Shown one piece after another: positions 45,442 through 53,582 of a stretch of 64,000 bases of DNA. This DNA is from Aliidongia dinghuensis (GTDB lineage: Bacteria; Pseudomonadota; Alphaproteobacteria; ATCC43930; CGMCC-115725). Position 1 is the stretch's first letter. The number at the start of each line of letters is the position of its first letter. Where the stretch lies: NCBI RefSeq assembly GCF_014643535.1, contig NZ_BMJQ01000018.1, positions 1 to 64,000 of the forward strand, read 5' to 3'. Made by a program: the position numbers and the translations under genes. Under the pieces are notes generated by a model, which had not been told where the DNA came from, did not search any database, and saw only the letters and a program-made list of their open reading frames with translations.

Positions 45442-46803
45442 ATGGCAGGGAAAACTATCAGAGCCGCATTGGGCGGGCTCGCCGTCGCCACGGCGGTGGG
45501 CCTGGCGCCGCCGGCCTCGGCGCAGACGGTGACCAATCCGACGGCCTTGACCGACTTCGGCAATCAGTTGCTCGAAGACGGCATATTCTTCCGCGGCCAC
45601 TATGTCGGCGAGGGCGCGGCCAATCCATCGGGCGGCTTGTCGCAGAGCTCGCGCTATACCGGCCAGGTCGACATCGGCGCCGATTTCGACATGGGCAAGA
45701 TCGCCAACCTCGGCAATTCGGCGATCCATCTGACGTTCAGCGATCGGCACGGTCAGAACCTGGCGGCGAAGGACATCGGCAACAGCATCTCGGTGCAGGA
45801 AGTCTACGGCGGCGGCCAGACCTACAAGCTGACCGAGCTCAGCTGGGACCAGGCACTGTGGGACGACCATGTCGAATTCCTGGTCGGCCGCACCGATGCG
45901 CCGAGCGATTTCGCCGCCTCGTCCTTCTACTGTAACTTCCAGACCAATTCGACCTGCGGCAACTCGAGCCTGTTCGGTCAGGACAATGCGCTCAACTACT
46001 ATCCGGTCGGCGTCTGGGGCGGCCGCATCACCATCAAGCCGACACCGCGGCTCTATGGCCAGATCGGCGCCTACGAGCAGGATCCGAACCAGGGCTCGAG
46101 CCAGACCCACGGCTTCGACTTCGGCGTTGACCGGGCGACCGGCTACGTCCTGCCGGTCGAGCTCGGCTATCAGACGAACTTCTCGTCGGATCCCTATCCC
46201 CGGCACTACAAGATCGGCATGTTCTATGACTCGGGCCCGTACAGCGACCCGTTCTTCGACGTCAACCATAATTCGGCGGCCTTGACCGGCCTGGCGCACG
46301 AGCAGCATTCCGGCCGGACCTCGATCTACGGTCTGTTCGACCAGATGGTCTGGCGGCCGGACCCGTCGTCCCAGCGCGGGCTCTATATCTTCGGCGGCGT
46401 CACCGCCGGCACGGACTCGAGCCAGCTCGCCGACTACTTCCTGCAGTTCGGCACGCTCTATAAAGGCCCGTTCGAAGGCCGTGACGCCGACGCCATCGGC
46501 TTCGTCATCACCGACCTGCACTGGGGCAACCACACCATGGACTTCCTGCGCGACTCGCGCATCGCCGCGGGCGGCAGTGCGACGACGCAGAATCCGAATG
46601 AAGTCATGATGGAATTGAACTACGGCGCCCAGGTGACGCCGTGGCTGCGCGTCACGCCCAACCTTCAATACATCATCAACCCGGACAACCTGCCGGAGCC
46701 GGCGCTGAAGAAGAACATCGACGACACGTTCGTCGTCGGCCTGAAGTTCGTCATCGGCCTCCCGGAACTGATCGGCTTGCCGACCAAGAACTACAACCAC
46801 TAA
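45442..46803 (+). CDS. OprB-like carbohydrate-selective porin
   Basis: This 453-residue outer-membrane porin has a signal peptide cleaved near ASA-QTVTNP. Repeated amphipathic strands end in aromatic residues, and the OprB hallmark segments are GRTDAPSDFAAS, GVWGGRITIKP and APWLRVTPNLQYIINPD-like (here VTPWLRVTPNLQYIINPD). The start at 45442 follows a GGGAGGGAAAG site. It is the last gene after xylFHG, 189 bases downstream of xylG, and ends before a strong terminator, so it likely brings the sugar across the outer membrane for the same importer. Confidence 0.92.
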   Translation: MAGKTIRAALGGLAVATAVGLAPPASAQTVTNPTALTDFGNQLLEDGIFFRGHYVGEGAANPSGGLSQSSRYTGQVDIGADFDMGKIANLGNSAIHLTFSDRHGQNLAAKDIGNSISVQEVYGGGQTYKLTELSWDQALWDDHVEFLVGRTDAPSDFAASSFYCNFQTNSTCGNSSLFGQDNALNYYPVGVWGGRITIKPTPRLYGQIGAYEQDPNQGSSQTHGFDFGVDRATGYVLPVELGYQTNFSSDPYPRHYKIGMFYDSGPYSDPFFDVNHNSAALTGLAHEQHSGRTSIYGLFDQMVWRPDPSSQRGLYIFGGVTAGTDSSQLADYFLQFGTLYKGPFEGRDADAIGFVITDLHWGNHTMDFLRDSRIAAGGSATTQNPNEVMMELNYGAQVTPWLRVTPNLQYIINPDNLPEPALKKNIDDTFVVGLKFVIGLPELIGLPTKNYNH

Positions 46804-46954: not shown

Positions 46955-47299
46955 CTACTCGGCGATCACGACGCCCTTGGCCGTGTCGGCATGATATTCG
47001 CCCGAGAACGGATACTTGCCGGCGCCGAGCGGCCTGAGGCGCACCGTACCGGTGCCGCCGCCGGCCACGACCTTCTCGACCTTGAGCGCCGAGGAATCGA
47101 ACTCCTCCGCCGTCGTGTCCTGGTTATGGATCGTGATGACGGTCGGCTTGCCAGCCGGCACATGGATCTCGGCCGGGGTGAACTTGTGGTCCTTGATCGT
47201 GAGCTCGACCGCGGTCGGCTCTTCCGCACGGGCAGGCAGGGCGGACAGGGACAGGCTCAGCACGGCAGCGGCCATGACGGCCCCGGAAAGACGAATCAT
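46955..47299 (-). CDS. Periplasmic cupredoxin-like protein (EfeO cupredoxin domain type)
   Basis: This small exported protein of 114 residues has a signal ending near PARA-EEPTAV and one cupredoxin domain (LTIKDHKFTPAEIHVPAGKP, then NQDTTAEEFDSSALKVEKVV and YPFSGEYHADTAKG). The classical type 1 copper cysteine is absent: the usual C is G in FSGEYH. This fits the subfamily found with FTR1/EfeU iron permeases rather than blue copper proteins. The ATG at 47299 is preferred to the TTG one codon earlier. It is the last gene of the operon after the DyP peroxidase, 30 bases away. A role as periplasmic iron or copper donor is inferred. Confidence 0.85.
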   Translation of the reverse strand: MIRLSGAVMAAAVLSLSLSALPARAEEPTAVELTIKDHKFTPAEIHVPAGKPTVITIHNQDTTAEEFDSSALKVEKVVAGGGTGTVRLRPLGAGKYPFSGEYHADTAKGVVIAE

Positions 47300-47329
47300 C
47301 AACGAAAACTCCCTCGTATCTCTCGTTTG

Positions 47330-48604
47330 TCAGGCCTCGAACAAGGATTGGCCGATATAGCCGCCCGGCCGGGCGCCGGGCGGGCAGGCAAACAGGCCAC
47401 TGCCGACATGGGTCGCGAACTGGTTCAGCATGTCGAATTTCGACGAGTTGCCGAAAATCTTGATGAAGCCGGTGCGCGGGTCGCGCTGGTAGCACACGAA
47501 CAGCAGGCCGGCGTCATAGAGCATGCCCTGCTTCCACGGCGGCCAGCGCTCGGCCGTGAAGGCGACGCCGTCGTTGTAGGAATAGCCGCGCCGGTAGATC
47601 TCGGCCCCGTCGTTGCTCGACGAATGCGACAGGCGGACATGGGAATTCTCCGGCATCACCGGATTGCCCTCGGCATCGGTCGCGTCGAGATCGACCTCGT
47701 CGAACTCCTTCTTCTTGCCGAGCGGTGCGCCCGAATACTTGTGCCGGCCGATGGTCTTTTCCTGGAAATCGACGTTCATGCGATCCCAGTGCTCGAGCGA
47801 GATGCGGACACGGCGCACGACCATGTAGCTGCCGCCCTGCATCCAGGCCGGACCTTCCGGCCCGACCCAGACGACCTTGTCGATCTGGTCCGGCTGGCGT
47901 GTGCCGTCCTTGAAGCCCATCAGGTTGCGCGGCGTCTTCTCGCCCGGCGGCTGAGAGGAGAAGCCGGTCTGGACCCAGCGCATCTCGGCGATGTCGTAGG
48001 CCATGGCCGAAAGCTGGCGTACCGCGTGGAACGCCACTTGCGGATCGTCGGCGCAGGCCTGGACGCTGAGGTCGCCGCCTGTCCGGGCCGGCACCAGCTG
48101 GTCGCCGTTGAAGCGCGGCAGGTCGACGAGCGCTTCCGGCCGATGGGCCGCCAGGCCGTAGCGGTCCTGGCCGTCCTTGGTGAAGAGCCCGGCGCCGAAG
48201 CCGAAGGTAAGCGTGAGCCGCGCCGGCCCGAGACCGAGGCCGTCCGCCGAATCGCCGGCCGGCACGCTCTGGTCCGCCGGAATCGGCTCGGCCGGCTCGC
48301 CGCGGGTGAGCCGCGCCGCCGCCTCGGTCCAGCGCTGCAGGAGCTTGACCACGTCCTCGCGCTTCGTCGTCGTGAGATCGAAGGCGGCGAAATAGGTATG
48401 CGACTGGGCCGGCGTCAGGATGCCCGACTGGCGCGCACCCCAGAACGGCTCGGCGGCCGGCGTGCCGGCGCGCTTCTTATCGGGCGCCGGGGTCGTGGCG
48501 GCCTCCGCGGTAAGCCCGATGCCGCCGGCAGCGACCAGGCTGCCGGCGGTGGCGAGAAAGCCGCGCCGCGACGGGTGCGGCGGCTTGCGCCCAGAGATAC
48601 TCAT
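47330..48604 (-). CDS. efeB: Tat-exported DyP-type haem peroxidase (EfeB-like)
   Basis: This 424-residue dye-decolourising peroxidase of the EfeB branch has a twin-arginine signal (SRRGFLATAG, R13-R14). The haem-pocket GxxDG motif is GFKDG. The proximal histidine is in NSHVRLSHSSS, followed by the arginine-rich IYRRGYSY. EfeB oxidises ferrous iron or haem-related substrates in the periplasm with peroxide. The start overlaps the stop of the NHL-repeat gene as ATGA, so the two are translationally coupled. The usual partners EfeU and M75-type EfeO are absent here; only a small cupredoxin follows. Confidence 0.94.
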   Translation of the reverse strand: MSISGRKPPHPSRRGFLATAGSLVAAGGIGLTAEAATTPAPDKKRAGTPAAEPFWGARQSGILTPAQSHTYFAAFDLTTTKREDVVKLLQRWTEAAARLTRGEPAEPIPADQSVPAGDSADGLGLGPARLTLTFGFGAGLFTKDGQDRYGLAAHRPEALVDLPRFNGDQLVPARTGGDLSVQACADDPQVAFHAVRQLSAMAYDIAEMRWVQTGFSSQPPGEKTPRNLMGFKDGTRQPDQIDKVVWVGPEGPAWMQGGSYMVVRRVRISLEHWDRMNVDFQEKTIGRHKYSGAPLGKKKEFDEVDLDATDAEGNPVMPENSHVRLSHSSSNDGAEIYRRGYSYNDGVAFTAERWPPWKQGMLYDAGLLFVCYQRDPRTGFIKIFGNSSKFDMLNQFATHVGSGLFACPPGARPGGYIGQSLFEA

Positions 48605-49758
48605 CGTGCCTCCACGACCGTGTTCATGTCGTCCTCGACGTAATAGAAGCCCTTGCCGTCGGGCGTCAGCGCGATGCCGAACAGGTCGCCGCTGCCCGGC
48701 GGCGTCTGCGCCTGGTCGGTGTCGATCCATTGCGCGGCGATCTGCTTGCCGGCGACTGGGTCGATCTCGACCACCTTGCCGTTCTTGGCATTGCAGACGA
48801 GCAGGTGGCCGTTCGGCGTCATGATCATGGCGAGCGGCCGGGCCATCTGGCCGTCGCGCGTCACTTCCTTGCCGGTGCCGGCGCTGGTCGTGCGGGTCGT
48901 GGCATCGGGAATCGCGACGATGCGGTTCTCGAGCGCGTCCGAGACGTAGAGCACGTCGCCAGCACCCACCGCGAGGCCGGTCGGCCCGATCAGGAACACG
49001 TCCTTGTCGGAACGCTGACCGAAGCCGTCGGCGACGACCGTGCGCTTCGCGATCACCGGCGGCTTGCCGTCGGCGATCGTGAGGTCGAGCCTCAGCACGG
49101 TCGCCTTCTTGATCGTGACGGAATAGCCCGTCGTGTCATGCACCTCGGGCCCCGGCACCTCGAAGCCGGCCATGCTGACGAAGATGCTGGCGGTCGCCCC
49201 ATTGTCGACCGTTGCGATATTGCCCCAGGGCGAATTGATGTCCGGACCGGACCAGGTCGCGGCGAGCTCGCCGTTCGGGCTGAAGACAAGCAGGCAACCG
49301 TCGCCCTTGGTCCGGGTCGTGCCGTCGTTGCTGGGCGTGCTGCCGACGATGACCCAGCCGGTCTTGAGCATGGTCATCGCGGTCGAGAGCCCGACGCCGC
49401 CCGGGCAGGCCGGCAGATGGCGCGGCACCTGGGCGAACAGCGTCGTCTGCTTGGTCGTCGGGTTGTAGTCGACGATCGTCGTGCCGAGCCCCTGCAGGTT
49501 CGTGAGATCGTTGAAATTGTCGATCAGCACGTCGTCCTTCTGGATCTTGCCGGCCGAGACCGGCGCCACGACGATCGCATAGGGGTTCTGGTCGCCGTTC
49601 TCCGGCACGGTCGTGGTCAGCGTCGTGTGCTTGCGCACGCCTTCGAGGAAGGCCCGGTTGTCCTGAGCCCCGGCCGAACCGCCGGCCGCGGCCGCCCCGA
49701 GCAGGATCGCGACGGCCGCAAGGGTCCGGGTGGGCGTGCATTTCGGGAAATGCGCCAT
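48601..49758 (-). CDS. Exported NHL-repeat beta-propeller protein
   Basis: This 385-residue exported protein has a signal cleaved near SAGA-QDNRAF. Several NHL/SMP-like blades are visible (PTGLAVGAGDVLYVSDALENRIVAI, then PLAMIMTPNGHLLVCNAKNGKVVEID and LFGIALTPDGKGFYYV). Such propellers bind ligands or other proteins; no catalytic residues are recognised. The ATG at 49758 follows an AAGGAC site. It lies between the porin and the DyP gene on one strand and overlaps the latter by 4 bases, so it probably works with the peroxidase. A Fur-like sequence lies upstream. Confidence 0.85.
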   Translation of the reverse strand: MAHFPKCTPTRTLAAVAILLGAAAAGGSAGAQDNRAFLEGVRKHTTLTTTVPENGDQNPYAIVVAPVSAGKIQKDDVLIDNFNDLTNLQGLGTTIVDYNPTTKQTTLFAQVPRHLPACPGGVGLSTAMTMLKTGWVIVGSTPSNDGTTRTKGDGCLLVFSPNGELAATWSGPDINSPWGNIATVDNGATASIFVSMAGFEVPGPEVHDTTGYSVTIKKATVLRLDLTIADGKPPVIAKRTVVADGFGQRSDKDVFLIGPTGLAVGAGDVLYVSDALENRIVAIPDATTRTTSAGTGKEVTRDGQMARPLAMIMTPNGHLLVCNAKNGKVVEIDPVAGKQIAAQWIDTDQAQTPPGSGDLFGIALTPDGKGFYYVEDDMNTVVEAR

Positions 49759-49806
49759 GGCTTGTCCTTTTCGTCTGCACCGACGCGCCATGGCGCGCCG
49801 GCATGA

Positions 49807-49825
49807 GATAATGCGAATGAGTTGC
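49807..49825 (-). promoter_or_regulatory. Second Fur-like site before the NHL-repeat gene
   Basis: GATAATGCGAATGAGTTGC matches the 19-bp Fur consensus (GATAATGATAATCATTATC) at 13 positions by hand count. It shares ATGCGAATG with the Fur region in front of the porin (complement of CATTCGCAT, 51489-51497). On the minus strand GTGACA and TATCTC flank it with 17 bases between, a possible weak promoter. It would give the last three genes an internal iron-responsive start. Confidence 0.4.
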
Positions 49826-49864
49826 GTTGTCACGAGAGAAACCGCGGCCGCGGGGACATCCCTG

Positions 49865-51397
49865 TCAGAACAGGATGTTGGTGCGCAGGCCCAGGACGAG
49901 TTCGTTCTTGATCCGCTGGCCGCCTGTGACGGGATTGGCCGTCGTCGGATTGGCGACGCCGCCGCCCGGGTTCATCACGTATTGCACGTCGGGCTGCAGC
50001 TGGAACCAGGGCGCGACCTCGTACTGGTAGGTCGCCTCGACGAAGGTCTCGTTGCTGCGGGCCGGCGTGTACGCGCCGCTGAACGCCTGCGTATCGCGGT
50101 CGAGGCCGGCGGCCCGGCCGCTCACCTTGGCATAGCCCATGCCGATGCCGAACGTGTCGTCGTCGCGGCCGAGGATCGGCTCCTTGAAGGTGAAGCCCAG
50201 GTTCGCGCTGAAGGTGACCAGATTGCGGTTGACCTCCGGCGTGCCCATGACGCGGCCGAAGATGCTGATGCTGCGGTCGGGCTCCTCGTTGTCGACCCAC
50301 AGCATCTGGTCGACGACGCCGTAGATGCCGTAGTCGCCGCGATGCGACTGCGCCATGCCGGTCGACGCCGGGTCGGCGAGCGAGCGGCCGAGGTTGTCGA
50401 AGCGCTGGTCGGCGAACCGTTCCGTGTCGTACCAGATGCCGAGGCGATAGGTCCGCGACAGCGGTTCCGGCTGGTCGGCATAGAGCATGGTGCCAAGCGA
50501 GGGATAGGCATATTGCAGCTCGGCGATGGCGAGCCCGCCGCCGTTGGTCGGGAAGCTGGTGCCCGACGGGTTCGTGCGCTGCGAATCACCCCCGCTGATC
50601 GCAGTCGGGCTGCCGTTGAACAGGCCGGCGAGCACGGTGATGCCGTCCGTGGGCTTCGCCCGGAGCCGCACGCCCAGCGCCGAGAGCGGATAGGCCGGAC
50701 CGCCGCCCGGCAGGTCGGCCGACGGCACCATCGGCCAGCCGAACATGGTGTTGACGAACAGCAGCGCGTTCTGGCTGACCATGAATTCCTGGTCGAGCGA
50801 CTGCTGGCCGATCTTCACGTCGGCCCGATCGTCCTCCAGGAACTTCTGCTGGTACCAGAGCTCCCAGAGCCGGGTCGCGCGGTCGGCCTCGATGCCGCTC
50901 GCCGTCTGCAGGCTCTGGAGATTGTCGGCGCTCAGGTTCCGGCCATGGATCTGCAGGGCGCTCGCGTTGAAGGTGCCGCCGGACCAGCCGAAAGCGCGCT
51001 TGGTATCGAGCTGGACCGACATCTGGGTGAGGCCGTCATAGTCGAACCCGTGGCGTGAGCCACCGGTGACGTTGCCCAGCACCTCGCTCGTCTCCTGCAG
51101 CGCGAAGGTGATGCCGTTGCGCGCCAGGAAGGGGCGCAGCCCCCACATGTCGCCCAGGAGATAGCCGCTGCGTTCCAGATTGTTCGTGAAGCCGAACAGG
51201 CCGGGCGAGGCACTGCTGTTCTGCAGGTCTTCCTCGGTTGGCGCCTGCAGCTGCGGCGGTGCGGCGAGCGCCGTGGTCGAAAACGCGCCGAGCGAGAGGA
51301 AGCCAAGCGCGAGTGCCGCACCGGCCGCCTTTGTGCGCGGGACGTTTGCGCGTGGAACCGGCAGAGGGCCACGGGAGGCGAAAGGAAGGCGCGACAT
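49865..51397 (-). CDS. OprB-like porin of the iron-responsive operon
   Basis: This 510-residue outer-membrane porin has a signal cleaved near TTALA-APPQLQ. OprB-family segments are seen: GLRPFLARNGITFALQETSE, then QLDTKRAFGWSGGTFNASAL, SQNALLFVNTMFGWP and APWFQLQPDVQYVMNPGGG near the C-terminus. It is longer than the porin of the xylose operon and only distantly similar. It is the first gene behind the double Fur box and is followed by the NHL, DyP and cupredoxin genes. OprB proteins usually pass sugars. Iron-regulated expression suggests another solute here, possibly a small iron chelate such as ferric citrate, but this is speculation. Confidence 0.9.
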   Translation of the reverse strand: MSRLPFASRGPLPVPRANVPRTKAAGAALALGFLSLGAFSTTALAAPPQLQAPTEEDLQNSSASPGLFGFTNNLERSGYLLGDMWGLRPFLARNGITFALQETSEVLGNVTGGSRHGFDYDGLTQMSVQLDTKRAFGWSGGTFNASALQIHGRNLSADNLQSLQTASGIEADRATRLWELWYQQKFLEDDRADVKIGQQSLDQEFMVSQNALLFVNTMFGWPMVPSADLPGGGPAYPLSALGVRLRAKPTDGITVLAGLFNGSPTAISGGDSQRTNPSGTSFPTNGGGLAIAELQYAYPSLGTMLYADQPEPLSRTYRLGIWYDTERFADQRFDNLGRSLADPASTGMAQSHRGDYGIYGVVDQMLWVDNEEPDRSISIFGRVMGTPEVNRNLVTFSANLGFTFKEPILGRDDDTFGIGMGYAKVSGRAAGLDRDTQAFSGAYTPARSNETFVEATYQYEVAPWFQLQPDVQYVMNPGGGVANPTTANPVTGGQRIKNELVLGLRTNILF

Positions 51398-51475
51398 GAA
51401 GGGCTCCGGATGACGATCTTGCGGGACCCGTCCGACGCGCCCAGGGCCGGGCGCTGGATAGCGGGTCCGCCATCC

Positions 51476-51503
51476 TCATAACGAGAATCATTCGCATCCG
51501 CAA
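51476..51503 (-). promoter_or_regulatory. Putative sigma-70 promoter of the iron-responsive operon
   Basis: On the minus strand TTGCGG (51503-51498) and TTATGA (51481-51476) are spaced by 16 bases and lie about 80 bp upstream of the porin start. Fur box 1 fills the spacer exactly and box 2 abuts the -35 element, which would block RNA polymerase when Fur is bound. Confidence 0.5.
51482..51496. promoter_or_regulatory. Fur box 1 upstream of the porin gene
   Basis: CGAGAATCATTCGCA matches the 7-1-7 Fur motif TGATAAT-N-ATTATCA at 10 of 14 positions. It lies in the promoter spacer, 22 bp start to start from the better box at 51504. Confidence 0.55.
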
Positions 51504-51518
51504 TGAGAATGATTCTCG
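51504..51518. promoter_or_regulatory. Fur box 2 upstream of the porin gene
   Basis: TGAGAATGATTCTCG contains the perfect palindrome GAGAAT-G-ATTCTC and matches the 7-1-7 Fur motif at 11 of 14 positions. Together with box 1 it suggests two Fur dimers on the same face of the helix. A Fur-family paralogue (Mur or Irr) cannot be excluded. Confidence 0.65.
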
Positions 51519-51528
51519 GTTGCCACCT

Positions 51529-52836
51529 TCAGGTGCGACGGAAGCGCCCGACCAGCTCGACGTGCGGCGACCAGACGAACTGGTCGACCGGCAGGACCCG
51601 CTCCAGGTGATAGCCGCCGTCGACCAGGATGCGTGCATCGCGCGCGAAGGTCGCGGGATTGCACGACACGCCGATGACCCGCGGCACCGTGGATTTTGCC
51701 AGCTGCTCGACTTGCGCCTTGGCGCCCGCGCGCGGCGGGTCGAACAGCACGGCGTCGAAGCGCCTCAGCTCCGCCGCCAGCAGCGGTCGCGCGTCCAGAT
51801 CGCGCCGCTCGGTCGAGACGAAACCGAGCCCGGCGCGCCGGGCTGCAGCCGTAAGCGCGCCGAGCGCCGCCGCATCGCCCTCGACCGCATGCAGCAGGGC
51901 GCGGGCGCCGAGCGCCAGGCCGAACGTGCCGCAGCCGGCAAACAGGTCGGCGACCCGCTCGGCTCCGGCAAGCGCCGCCACGACCTCGGCCGTGAGCGCC
52001 GCCTCGCCATCCGCCGTCGCCTGCAGGAAACCGCCGGCCGGCGGTTCGACCGGTACGTCGCCGAAGCGATGCCCGAGCGGCCGCCGCTGCGCCGCCGGCA
52101 CGGGCGCCATGTCGCCCACGCGCCACCACAGCCGCGCCAGATCTTGCGCGTCCGCGAAGGCCGTGAGCCGTTCCAGCTGTTCGAGATCCGGTGCGGCCGC
52201 CAGGGCTAAGCCCAGATCGATGCCGCCCGGCCCCTGCCCAAGCAGCACCGTGGCGCTGCCGCCCGGCAGCAGCAAGGTCGCGAGCAGCGTGCGGAGCGAC
52301 GGCAGCAGCCGCGCCAAGTCTGGCAACAGCACCGGACATTCGCCAAGATCGACGATCTGGTGGCTCGCCCGGGCGTGGAAGCCCAGAAGCACGCCGCCGC
52401 TCGTCCGCTTCGCTTCCAACGTCGCCCGGCGCCGGCTTTCCGGCGGGCTTGGCGCGACAGCCTCGACCGGCACATCTGCCAACCCCTGGCGGCGGAGCGC
52501 GTCGACCACCAGGTCGCGCTTGAAGTCGAGATAGGGCTGCCAGGCCAGGTGCTGCAGCGCGCAGCCGCCGCAGGTGCCGAAATGCCGGCAGGCCGGCTCG
52601 ATGCGCGACGGGCTGGGCGCGATCACGTCCAAGAGGTCGGCTGCACCGCCCATGACCCGCACCCGGACCTGCTCACCCGGCAGGCTGCCCGGCACCAGCA
52701 CCGGCCGCCCGTCGAGCCGGGCGACGCCGACACCTTCGCTGCCGAGCTTGTCGATCACGAGTTCGATCTCGCGCGCCGGGCCTTTCGCCGGTTGCCGCTG
52801 GCCTTGGCGCGAGCCCGGACGCGGCCGGCCTCTCAT
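51529..52836 (-). CDS. 23S rRNA (uracil-5-)-methyltransferase, RlmD/RumA family
   Basis: This SAM-dependent enzyme of 435 residues makes 5-methyluridine in 23S rRNA. A short basic N-terminus precedes a TRAM domain (residues about 22-75). Iron-sulfur cysteines are C83, C89, C92 and C167 (ACRHFGTCGGC and GECP). The SAM motif is VADLFAGCGTFGLALG. The catalytic cysteine is in VIGVSCNPATFARD and the DPPRAG motif lies before it. The start at 52836 overlaps the tlyA stop by 4 bases (ATGA), pairing two rRNA-modifying enzymes. RlmC or TrmA-like substrates cannot be ruled out by sequence alone. Confidence 0.92.
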   Translation of the reverse strand: MRGRPRPGSRQGQRQPAKGPAREIELVIDKLGSEGVGVARLDGRPVLVPGSLPGEQVRVRVMGGAADLLDVIAPSPSRIEPACRHFGTCGGCALQHLAWQPYLDFKRDLVVDALRRQGLADVPVEAVAPSPPESRRRATLEAKRTSGGVLLGFHARASHQIVDLGECPVLLPDLARLLPSLRTLLATLLLPGGSATVLLGQGPGGIDLGLALAAAPDLEQLERLTAFADAQDLARLWWRVGDMAPVPAAQRRPLGHRFGDVPVEPPAGGFLQATADGEAALTAEVVAALAGAERVADLFAGCGTFGLALGARALLHAVEGDAAALGALTAAARRAGLGFVSTERRDLDARPLLAAELRRFDAVLFDPPRAGAKAQVEQLAKSTVPRVIGVSCNPATFARDARILVDGGYHLERVLPVDQFVWSPHVELVGRFRRT

Positions 52837-53582
52837 GGCCGGGCGCTCCGGCGAGCATGGATCAGGAACTCGGTATTGCCGTCCGGGCCCTTGATCGGGC
52901 TTTCGGTGAGCCCCAGCACCTGCCAGCCCGGCCGCGCACCGAGCCAGTCGGCGATGCGCTGGCACACGGCCGCGTGCAGCGCCGGATCCTTGACCACGCC
53001 GCCCTTGCCGACCAGCGCCGGGCCGACCTCGAACTGCGGCTTGATGAGCGCCACCAGGTCAGCCTCCTCTGCCGCCCGTTCGAGCGGCGCCGGCAGCAGA
53101 GTCTCAAGCCCGATGAAGCTCGCGTCCGAGACCAGGAGCGAGATCGGCTCGGGCACCTCCGCCGCCGTCAGGTAGCGGGCGTTGACCCGTTCCAGCACGA
53201 TGACGCGCGGGTCGACGCGCAGCTTCGCCGCCAGCTGGTCGTGGCCGACGTCGACCGCATAGACCCGTCTCGCACCACGCTGCAGCAGCACGTCGGTGAA
53301 GCCGCCGGTCGAAGCGCCGATGTCGAGCGCCACCCGGCCCTCGGCCGAAATGCCGAAATGGTCGAGCGCGTGGGCGAGCTTGACGCCGCCGCGCGAGACC
53401 CAGGGATGGTCGAGGCCGGTCACCCGGATCACCGCCGCATCGTCGACCGGCCGCGACGGCTTGTCGGCGACGACGCCGTCGACCGTCACCAGCCCGGCCT
53501 CGATCAAGGCGCGCGCCCGGCTGCGGCTGTCGGCCAAGCGGCCGTCGACCAGCGCCTGATCCAGGCGGCGCCCGCCCGTCAT
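52833..53582 (-). CDS. tlyA: TlyA family rRNA 2'-O-methyltransferase (hemolysin A family)
   Basis: This 249-residue protein has an N-terminal S4 RNA-binding domain at about 5-60 (RLDQALVDGRLADSRSRARALIEAGLVTVDG). A FtsJ-like SAM methyltransferase domain follows (VALDIGASTGGFTDVLLQRGA, with the KDKE-type residues within SRGGVKL, DVSF-like SDASFIGLE and IKPQFEVG). In characterised bacteria TlyA methylates ribose of rRNA cytidines and its loss gives capreomycin resistance. It follows the MATE gene by 16 bases and overlaps the RlmD-type gene. Confidence 0.95.
   Translation of the reverse strand: MTGGRRLDQALVDGRLADSRSRARALIEAGLVTVDGVVADKPSRPVDDAAVIRVTGLDHPWVSRGGVKLAHALDHFGISAEGRVALDIGASTGGFTDVLLQRGARRVYAVDVGHDQLAAKLRVDPRVIVLERVNARYLTAAEVPEPISLLVSDASFIGLETLLPAPLERAAEEADLVALIKPQFEVGPALVGKGGVVKDPALHAAVCQRIADWLGARPGWQVLGLTESPIKGPDGNTEFLIHARRSARP

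What the first reader, a model, noticed from the sequence alone, without database searches (positions are those of the whole stretch)
51476..51518. Two Fur boxes 22 bp apart bracket a recognisable promoter
On the minus strand TTGCGG-16-TTATGA forms a plausible promoter. Box 1 (10 of 14) fills its spacer and box 2 (11 of 14, with perfect GAGAAT-G-ATTCTC palindrome) abuts the -35. The 22-bp step is about two helix turns, so two dimers would bind one face.
Basis: seen in the sequence. Interest (0 to 1): 0.5.

Follow-up and report, generated by a model that had tools for sequence, protein, structure and literature searches.

The report
Iron-repressor sites at iron-uptake operon promoter
A cluster of likely binding sites for the iron repressor Fur sits just upstream of an iron-uptake operon in an alphaproteobacterium; this is an ordinary kind of iron switch, though the operon it seems to control unusually joins a sugar-type porin to iron-uptake proteins.

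Summary
The two boxes are real, where stated, and beyond chance. They lie in the 131-bp gap before a minus-strand gene set: OprB-family porin, NHL-like protein, EfeB, cupredoxin. No such pair arose in 150 window shuffles, and box 2 holds the genome's only perfect GAGAATNATTCTC. Of 31 loci with the NHL gene beside OprB (window included), 21 have an E. coli-type site of at least 10/14 upstream, against 3 of 30 OprB loci without it. The genome's Fur is 98/134 identical to Magnetospirillum Fur and keeps all 16 residues checked. Fur repression of an Efe-type iron operon is therefore very likely, but binding is untested.

Three details change. The promoter reads better as TTGCGG-17-TATGAG (7/12) than TTGCGG-16-TTATGA (4/12), though it stays weak. 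A third site, offset 6 bp from box 1, covers 5 of 6 bases of that -10. The one-helix-face argument is weak: spacing is 22 bp in four loci, but 28, 30 or 31 in six others.

The operator is a new member of a known kind. More interesting is the operon, an Efe-like set with its own porin.

The parts
51504..51518 (-). Fur box 2 (distal), CGAGAATCATTCTCA, abuts the -35
   Evidence: 11/14 to E. coli 7-1-7; holds the genome's only perfect GAGAATNATTCTC
51482..51496 (-). Fur box 1 (proximal), TGCGAATGATTCTCG, inside the -35/-10 spacer
   Evidence: 10/14
51476..51490 (-). third 7-1-7 site, TGATTCTCGTTATGA, offset 6 bp from box 1; covers 5 of the 6 bases of the corrected -10
   Evidence: 10/14; the 19-mer at 51477-51495 scores 14/19
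51498..51503 (-). putative -35, TTGCGG
   Evidence: 3/6; TTGCGA or TTGCAA at the same distance before the proximal box in L062, L069, L075, L077, L081 (sequences)
51475..51480 (-). putative -10, TATGAG, 17-bp spacer (corrected register)
   Evidence: 4/6; TA at this register in 10 of 18 hand-anchored loci, window included
49865..51397 (-). OprB-family porin, first gene; possible ribosome site GGAG at 51404-51407
   Evidence: PF04966 E=1.6e-95; sequence
48601..49833 (-). NHL/SMP-30-like protein, 31 bp after OprB (longest ORF; true start may lie further in)
   Evidence: weak: SGL 25.6 bits under its cut-off, NHL 21 bits just over
47330..48730 (-). EfeB, iron-uptake deferrochelatase/DyP peroxidase (longest ORF; true start probably 48604, MSISGRK)
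   Evidence: TIGR01412 452 bits, cut-off 428; Dyp_perox N and C
46955..47302 (-). cupredoxin, 115 aa, 27 bp after EfeB
   Evidence: PF13473 E=2.5e-29; EfeO model only 26 bits of 297
51529..52965 (-). upstream neighbour, RlmD-like rRNA methyltransferase; not thought to be controlled by the boxes
   Evidence: TIGR00479 197.2 bits, cut-off 183.55

Best explanation
An iron-responsive operator-promoter. With plentiful Fe2+, the organism's Fur (G000:C1:187798) binds as dimers to the distal box beside the -35 and to an overlapping pair of sites across the spacer and -10. This keeps RNA polymerase off and shuts down the OprB-NHL-EfeB-cupredoxin genes. When iron is scarce Fur leaves and transcription starts near 51468. 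Shown here: the sites, their excess over chance, their conservation, the iron genes downstream, and a Fur with its contact residues. Inferred: binding, occlusion, start site, co-transcription (same strand, gaps of at most 31 bp or overlap) and the response to iron.
For: Excess over shuffles and genome rarity. Footprint: 21 of 31 loci with the NHL gene against 3 of 30 without, scored with the E. coli consensus, not one built from this locus. Against genus-mate L062, 36 of 44 bases are identical over 51475-51518, 25 of 32 at the end of the upstream gene, and 19 of 77 in the leader. Fur: PF01475 127.8 bits over 23.1; best solved match MgFur 4RAY, 98/134 identical, 16 of 16 residues checked kept, with MgFur numbering set by my own offset. 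Lys15, Thr17, Gln19, Arg20, Ser51, Thr54, Tyr56, Arg57, Cys9, His33, His90, Glu108 and His125 are named in the PMC4506495 passages seen; Glu81, His88 and Glu101 are recalled. EfeB over its cut-off. The genome's one FTR1 (efeU) match, followed by a cupredoxin gene, has TGCGAATGGTTCTGA between TTGCAA and TATCTG, 17 bp apart. One TonB-dependent receptor gene has an 11/14 site; a VIT1 gene has three box-like sites upstream.
Against: No binding or expression data. Weak hexamers: nothing in the promoter scan, and the 7/12 is tied with another candidate, TTCTCA-17-TCTCGT. The automatic best candidate was this register in only 3 of 18 anchored loci (L069, L075, L077), and the -10 letters are also Fur half-site letters. 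10 of 31 loci with NHL lack a site of at least 10/14, same-family L036 among them. The efeU box scores 9/14 to the E. coli consensus. Of 16 TonB receptors, one has an 11/14 site and one a 10/14 site reached in 7% of shuffles. C1:187798 is under the cut-off of every NCBIfam Fur model it matched (best 92.6 of 146 bits). At a loose limit two matches per window are common in shuffles.
Confidence: 0.9

Rival explanations
1. Irr, not Fur, binds here through an ICE-like motif.
For: An IrrA over its cut-off (C1:163684) and an Irr-like protein under the cut-offs (C2:344295; 131.8 of 150 bits) are encoded. Orthologues L073 (Methylocapsa) and L080 (Bradyrhizobium) have ICE-like sites of 12/14, reached in 0 of 200 mononucleotide shuffles; L071 (11/14, 0.05) and L070 (10/14, 0.03) score on the letters of their Fur boxes.
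Against: The best ICE score at this promoter is 9/14, reached in 0.06 of shuffles, against 11/14 for Fur. The ICE consensus used is recalled.
Confidence: 0.05
2. The Fur homologue works as a Mur and the operon answers to manganese.
For: Rhizobial Fur/Mur proteins are close relatives of MgFur: the passage seen gives 83% for R. leguminosarum and 80% for B. japonicum (PMC3251581); that these act as Mur is recalled. No NCBIfam Fur cut-off is met.
Against: The closest solved relative is MgFur, whose ChIP signal at four promoters appeared only under high iron. The genes here and at C1:561263 are iron-uptake genes.
Confidence: 0.07
3. Chance palindromes, or a terminator of the upstream rlmD-like gene.
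For: Box 2 ends 10 bp past the rlmD stop codon. At a loose limit two matches per window occurred in 16 of 100 shuffles.
Against: The core has a one-base centre, so a stable hairpin is not expected (inference). No terminator-like site at 51300-51700, no Rfam match at 51200-51700 up to E=1, and conservation and paired-site shuffles speak against chance.
Confidence: 0.02

Closest known systems
Classic Fur operator (19-bp Fur box)
   Same: 7-1-7 inverted repeats; a 6-bp-offset overlapping pair (best 19-mer 14/19); lies over promoter-like elements
   Different: GAGAAT/GCGAAT half-sites instead of GATAAT; binding not shown
EAEC sci1 promoter (PMC3145626, passages seen)
   Same: one Fur box over the -10 and one upstream of the -35
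   Different: controls a type VI secretion cluster and involves Dam sites; here iron-uptake genes
Magnetospirillum gryphiswaldense MSR-1 Fur (PMC4506495 and PMC3251581, passages seen)
   Same: 73% identical Fur; 16 of 16 residues checked are kept
   Different: targets in the passages seen are feoAB1, feoAB2, katG and sodB; no OprB-EfeB operon there
EfeUOB iron uptake (PMC3577903, PMC9174327; abstract starts seen in listings)
   Same: EfeB and a cupredoxin; one FTR1 gene elsewhere in the genome and FTR1 in 7 of 72 OprB loci
   Different: no efeU in this operon; OprB porin and NHL protein added; cupredoxin domain alone instead of full EfeO
Synechocystis Slr1908 iron-selective porin (PMC11126600, passages seen)
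   Same: an outer-membrane porin serving iron uptake; link to SLH/OprB proteins only from titles and term counts
   Different: cyanobacterial and PhoB-regulated; homology to this OprB not tested

Membership tests
Fur operator (Fur box) | 7-1-7 inverted repeat like the consensus, beyond chance | tested here: met
   11, 10 and 10 of 14; 0 of 150 shuffles with a pair
Fur operator (Fur box) | Fur protein with DNA-contact residues in the same genome | tested here: met
   C1:187798, Lys15/Tyr56/Arg57 kept; but under NCBIfam Fur cut-offs
Fur operator (Fur box) | conserved just upstream of an iron-uptake operon | tested here: met
   EfeB in the operon; 21 of 31 against 3 of 30
Fur operator (Fur box) | metal-dependent binding and iron-dependent repression | not testable with these tools
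   needs footprint, EMSA or reporter
Irr control element (ICE) | match to TTTAGAA-N3-TTCTAAA (recalled) | tested here: not met
   best 9/14 at this promoter, 0.06 of shuffles
EfeUOB system | EfeB | tested here: met
   TIGR01412 over its cut-off
EfeUOB system | EfeU (FTR1) in the same operon | tested here: not met
   the one FTR1 match in the genome is at C1:561263
EfeUOB system | full EfeO | tested here: not met
   115-aa cupredoxin; EfeO model 26 of 297 bits
sigma-70 type promoter | recognisable -35 and -10 | tested here: inconclusive
   7/12 at 17 bp, tied with another candidate; nothing at 9/12

The most novel reading that the evidence does not exclude
The Fur-controlled OprB-NHL-EfeB-cupredoxin cassette, with FTR1 beside it or elsewhere, is an extended Efe iron-uptake system with its own TonB-independent outer-membrane porin. 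OprB-family porins would then be iron entry ports in proteobacteria, as reported for the porin Slr1908 in Synechocystis.
Probability: 0.4. Interest if true: 0.5.

Novelty: new member of a known kind. Interest (0 to 1): 0.25.

Why it matters
The operator itself is ordinary. Its value is as a marker: it places a porin of a family named carbohydrate-selective, and an unnamed NHL-like protein, in the iron regulon. That suggests, but does not show, a porin route for iron across the outer membrane linked to the Efe/FTR1 system in alpha- and some betaproteobacteria.

Tried and rejected
Tried with little or no gain. Promoter and terminator scan: nothing found. Rfam around the promoter: nothing up to E=1. 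Scan of the own genome for TGCGAATNATTCGCA with up to 3 mismatches: 140 places against 45 for the reversed control, capped list. Of 12 loci read (9, 3), eight have the site inside an ORF of at least 90 aa (not checked as genes), and only the TonB-receptor site looked convincing. TonB receptors as a regulon test: of 16, one has an 11/14 site, one 10/14 (0.07 of shuffles), and one 9/14 in a long region (0.02); starts were guessed.

Literature searches for an OprB/EfeB/FTR1 cassette listed nothing that, from listings and abstract starts, describes it; one search listed 12 of 171 papers. One search was unhelpful. In Caulobacter two porin genes fall rather than rise under iron limitation (PMC3751524, passages seen); whether they are OprB was not tested.

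Rejected: chance; terminator; Irr/ICE at this promoter; strict helical phasing of the two boxes.

Full report
Setting. The window is the first 64 kb of contig C18 of a 7.37-Mb genome in 91 contigs. The closest named locus, 79% identical in the porin, is from a Rhodospirillales MAG, RYN_449 (L062). The boxes lie in the 131-bp gap between a minus-strand rlmD-like gene (51529-52965) and a minus-strand gene set: OprB-family porin, NHL/SMP-30-like protein, EfeB, cupredoxin. EfeB exceeds the cut-off of the NCBI model for the iron-uptake deferrochelatase subunit (452 against 428 bits). The intergenic gaps are 31 and 27 bp, and NHL and EfeB overlap. The next gene downstream appears to be on the other strand (45442-46803).

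The sites. A third site, TGATTCTCGTTATGA (51476-51490), scores 10 and is offset 6 bp from box 1; the 19-mer at 51477-51495 scores 14/19 against the classic Fur box. The window has four sites of at least 10/14, three of them here; shuffles give 1.86 on average, and 0 of 150 gave a pair 16-40 bp apart. Of 5000 shuffles of the gap, 12 reached 11/14 and 0 gave a pair. In the genome GAGAATNATTCTC has one perfect match and five with one mismatch; the perfect one and one of the five are these boxes. With up to two mismatches there are 62 places, against 23 for the reversed-pattern control. A looser count is less impressive: 16 of 100 shuffles had two or more matches with up to 3 mismatches to TGAGAATNATTCTCA.

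Promoter. TTGCGG-16-TTATGA matches 3/6 and 1/6 (hand count). TTGCGG-17-TATGAG matches 3/6 and 4/6, the best score in the gap, tied with TTCTCA-17-TCTCGT. The scan, which needs 9/12, reported none. TTGCGA or TTGCAA stands at the same distance before the proximal box in L062, L069, L075, L077 and L081, and TA stands at the corrected -10 register in 10 of 18 hand-anchored loci, window included. But the automatic best candidate was this register in only 3 of the 18, and the -10 letters are also Fur half-site letters. The promoter is likely but unproven.

Footprint in relatives. Two searches gave 72 OprB loci, L032-L103. 61 were scored; 11 were dropped as duplicates or for lacking 250 bp upstream. 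With the E. coli consensus, 21 of 31 loci with the NHL gene on the same strand (window included; 20 of 30 without it) have a site of at least 10/14, and 16 of 31 reach their score in at most 5% of their own shuffles. Of 30 loci without NHL, 3 have such a site and 2 reach that level. Of those three, L064 ends 248 bp after the porin match, so its next gene cannot be seen; L044 has an FTR1 gene in the locus; L091 looks like chance. Against L062, 36 of 44 bases are identical over 51475-51518, 19 of 77 in the leader and 25 of 32 at the end of the upstream gene. With a looser consensus built from this motif, 31 chosen loci were read for spacing: 22 bp in L032 (window), L062, L035, L037; 28 in L064, L066, L069, L070; 30 in L075; 31 in L077; and wider pairs (48 to 97 bp) in L065, L067, L083, L085. 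A fixed two-turn phasing is not conserved.

The regulator. Four Fur-family genes are present. C1:187798 best matches MgFur among solved structures and is 98/134 identical. All 16 positions compared are the same, including Lys15, Tyr56 and Arg57, the DNA-reading residues of PMC4506495 (passages); numbering is by my offset. It does not reach the cut-off of any NCBIfam Fur model it matched (best 92.6 of 146 bits). C1:163684 is an IrrA over its cut-off; C2:344295 is Irr-like and C27:24898 Zur-like, both under theirs. The recalled ICE motif scores 9/14 at this promoter. L073 (Methylocapsa) and L080 (Bradyrhizobium) have ICE-like sites of 12/14, reached in 0 of 200 shuffles, and no Fur site of at least 10/14; this hints that Irr has replaced Fur there.

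The rest of the iron system. The one FTR1 (efeU) match in the genome is at C1:561263, followed by a second cupredoxin gene. Upstream stands TTGCAA, 17 bp holding TGCGAATGGTTCTGA, then TATCTG. That box scores 9/14 to the E. coli consensus and 11/14 to TGCGAATNATTCGCA. FTR1 matches occur in 7 of the 72 OprB loci, many of which are short. Of the 42 loci, 28 have the NHL gene and 27 of these also EfeB; their record titles are mostly alphaproteobacterial, with betaproteobacteria (L088, L090, L093) and two MAGs labelled Planctomycetota and Capsulimonadaceae (L072, L084). One TonB-receptor gene (C9) has an 11/14 site, and a VIT1 gene (C15) has three sites two mismatches each from GAGAATNATTCTC, 28 and 25 bp apart. 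Of 16 TonB receptors the other 15 have no 11/14 site.

Known or new. A Fur box over the -10 with another upstream of the -35 is known, for example EAEC sci1 (PMC3145626, passages). The operator is a new member of a known kind. The OprB-NHL-EfeB-cupredoxin cassette was not described in the listings of three searches. That does not prove it unpublished: the comparative study of alphaproteobacterial iron regulons that I recalled as most likely to mention it was not held.

Noticed in passing
46955-51397: OprB, NHL-like and EfeB genes recur together: of 42 loci from named records, 28 have NHL and 27 of these EfeB too, mostly alpha- and some betaproteobacteria by record title.
   Followed up: partly
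L120:5216-6475 (G000:C1:561215-562474): The genome's one FTR1 match, followed by a second cupredoxin gene, with a Fur-like box just upstream inside a TTGCAA-17-TATCTG layout.
   Followed up: partly
L020:7354-7419 (G000:C15:175353-175418): Three Fur-like sites 28 and 25 bp apart upstream of a VIT1-family transporter gene.
   Followed up: partly
L073 and L080, about 290 bp upstream of the estimated OprB start: ICE-like sites (12/14, recalled consensus) in Methylocapsa and Bradyrhizobium loci without a good Fur box, hinting that Irr replaced Fur there.
   Followed up: partly
45442-46803: A second porin-like gene on the plus strand converges on the operon; OprB-like by eye only, not searched.
   Followed up: no
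L024:5658-5672 (G000:C12:205657-205671): Fur-like site TGAAAATCATTCGCA upstream of a chemotaxis receptor gene.
   Followed up: no
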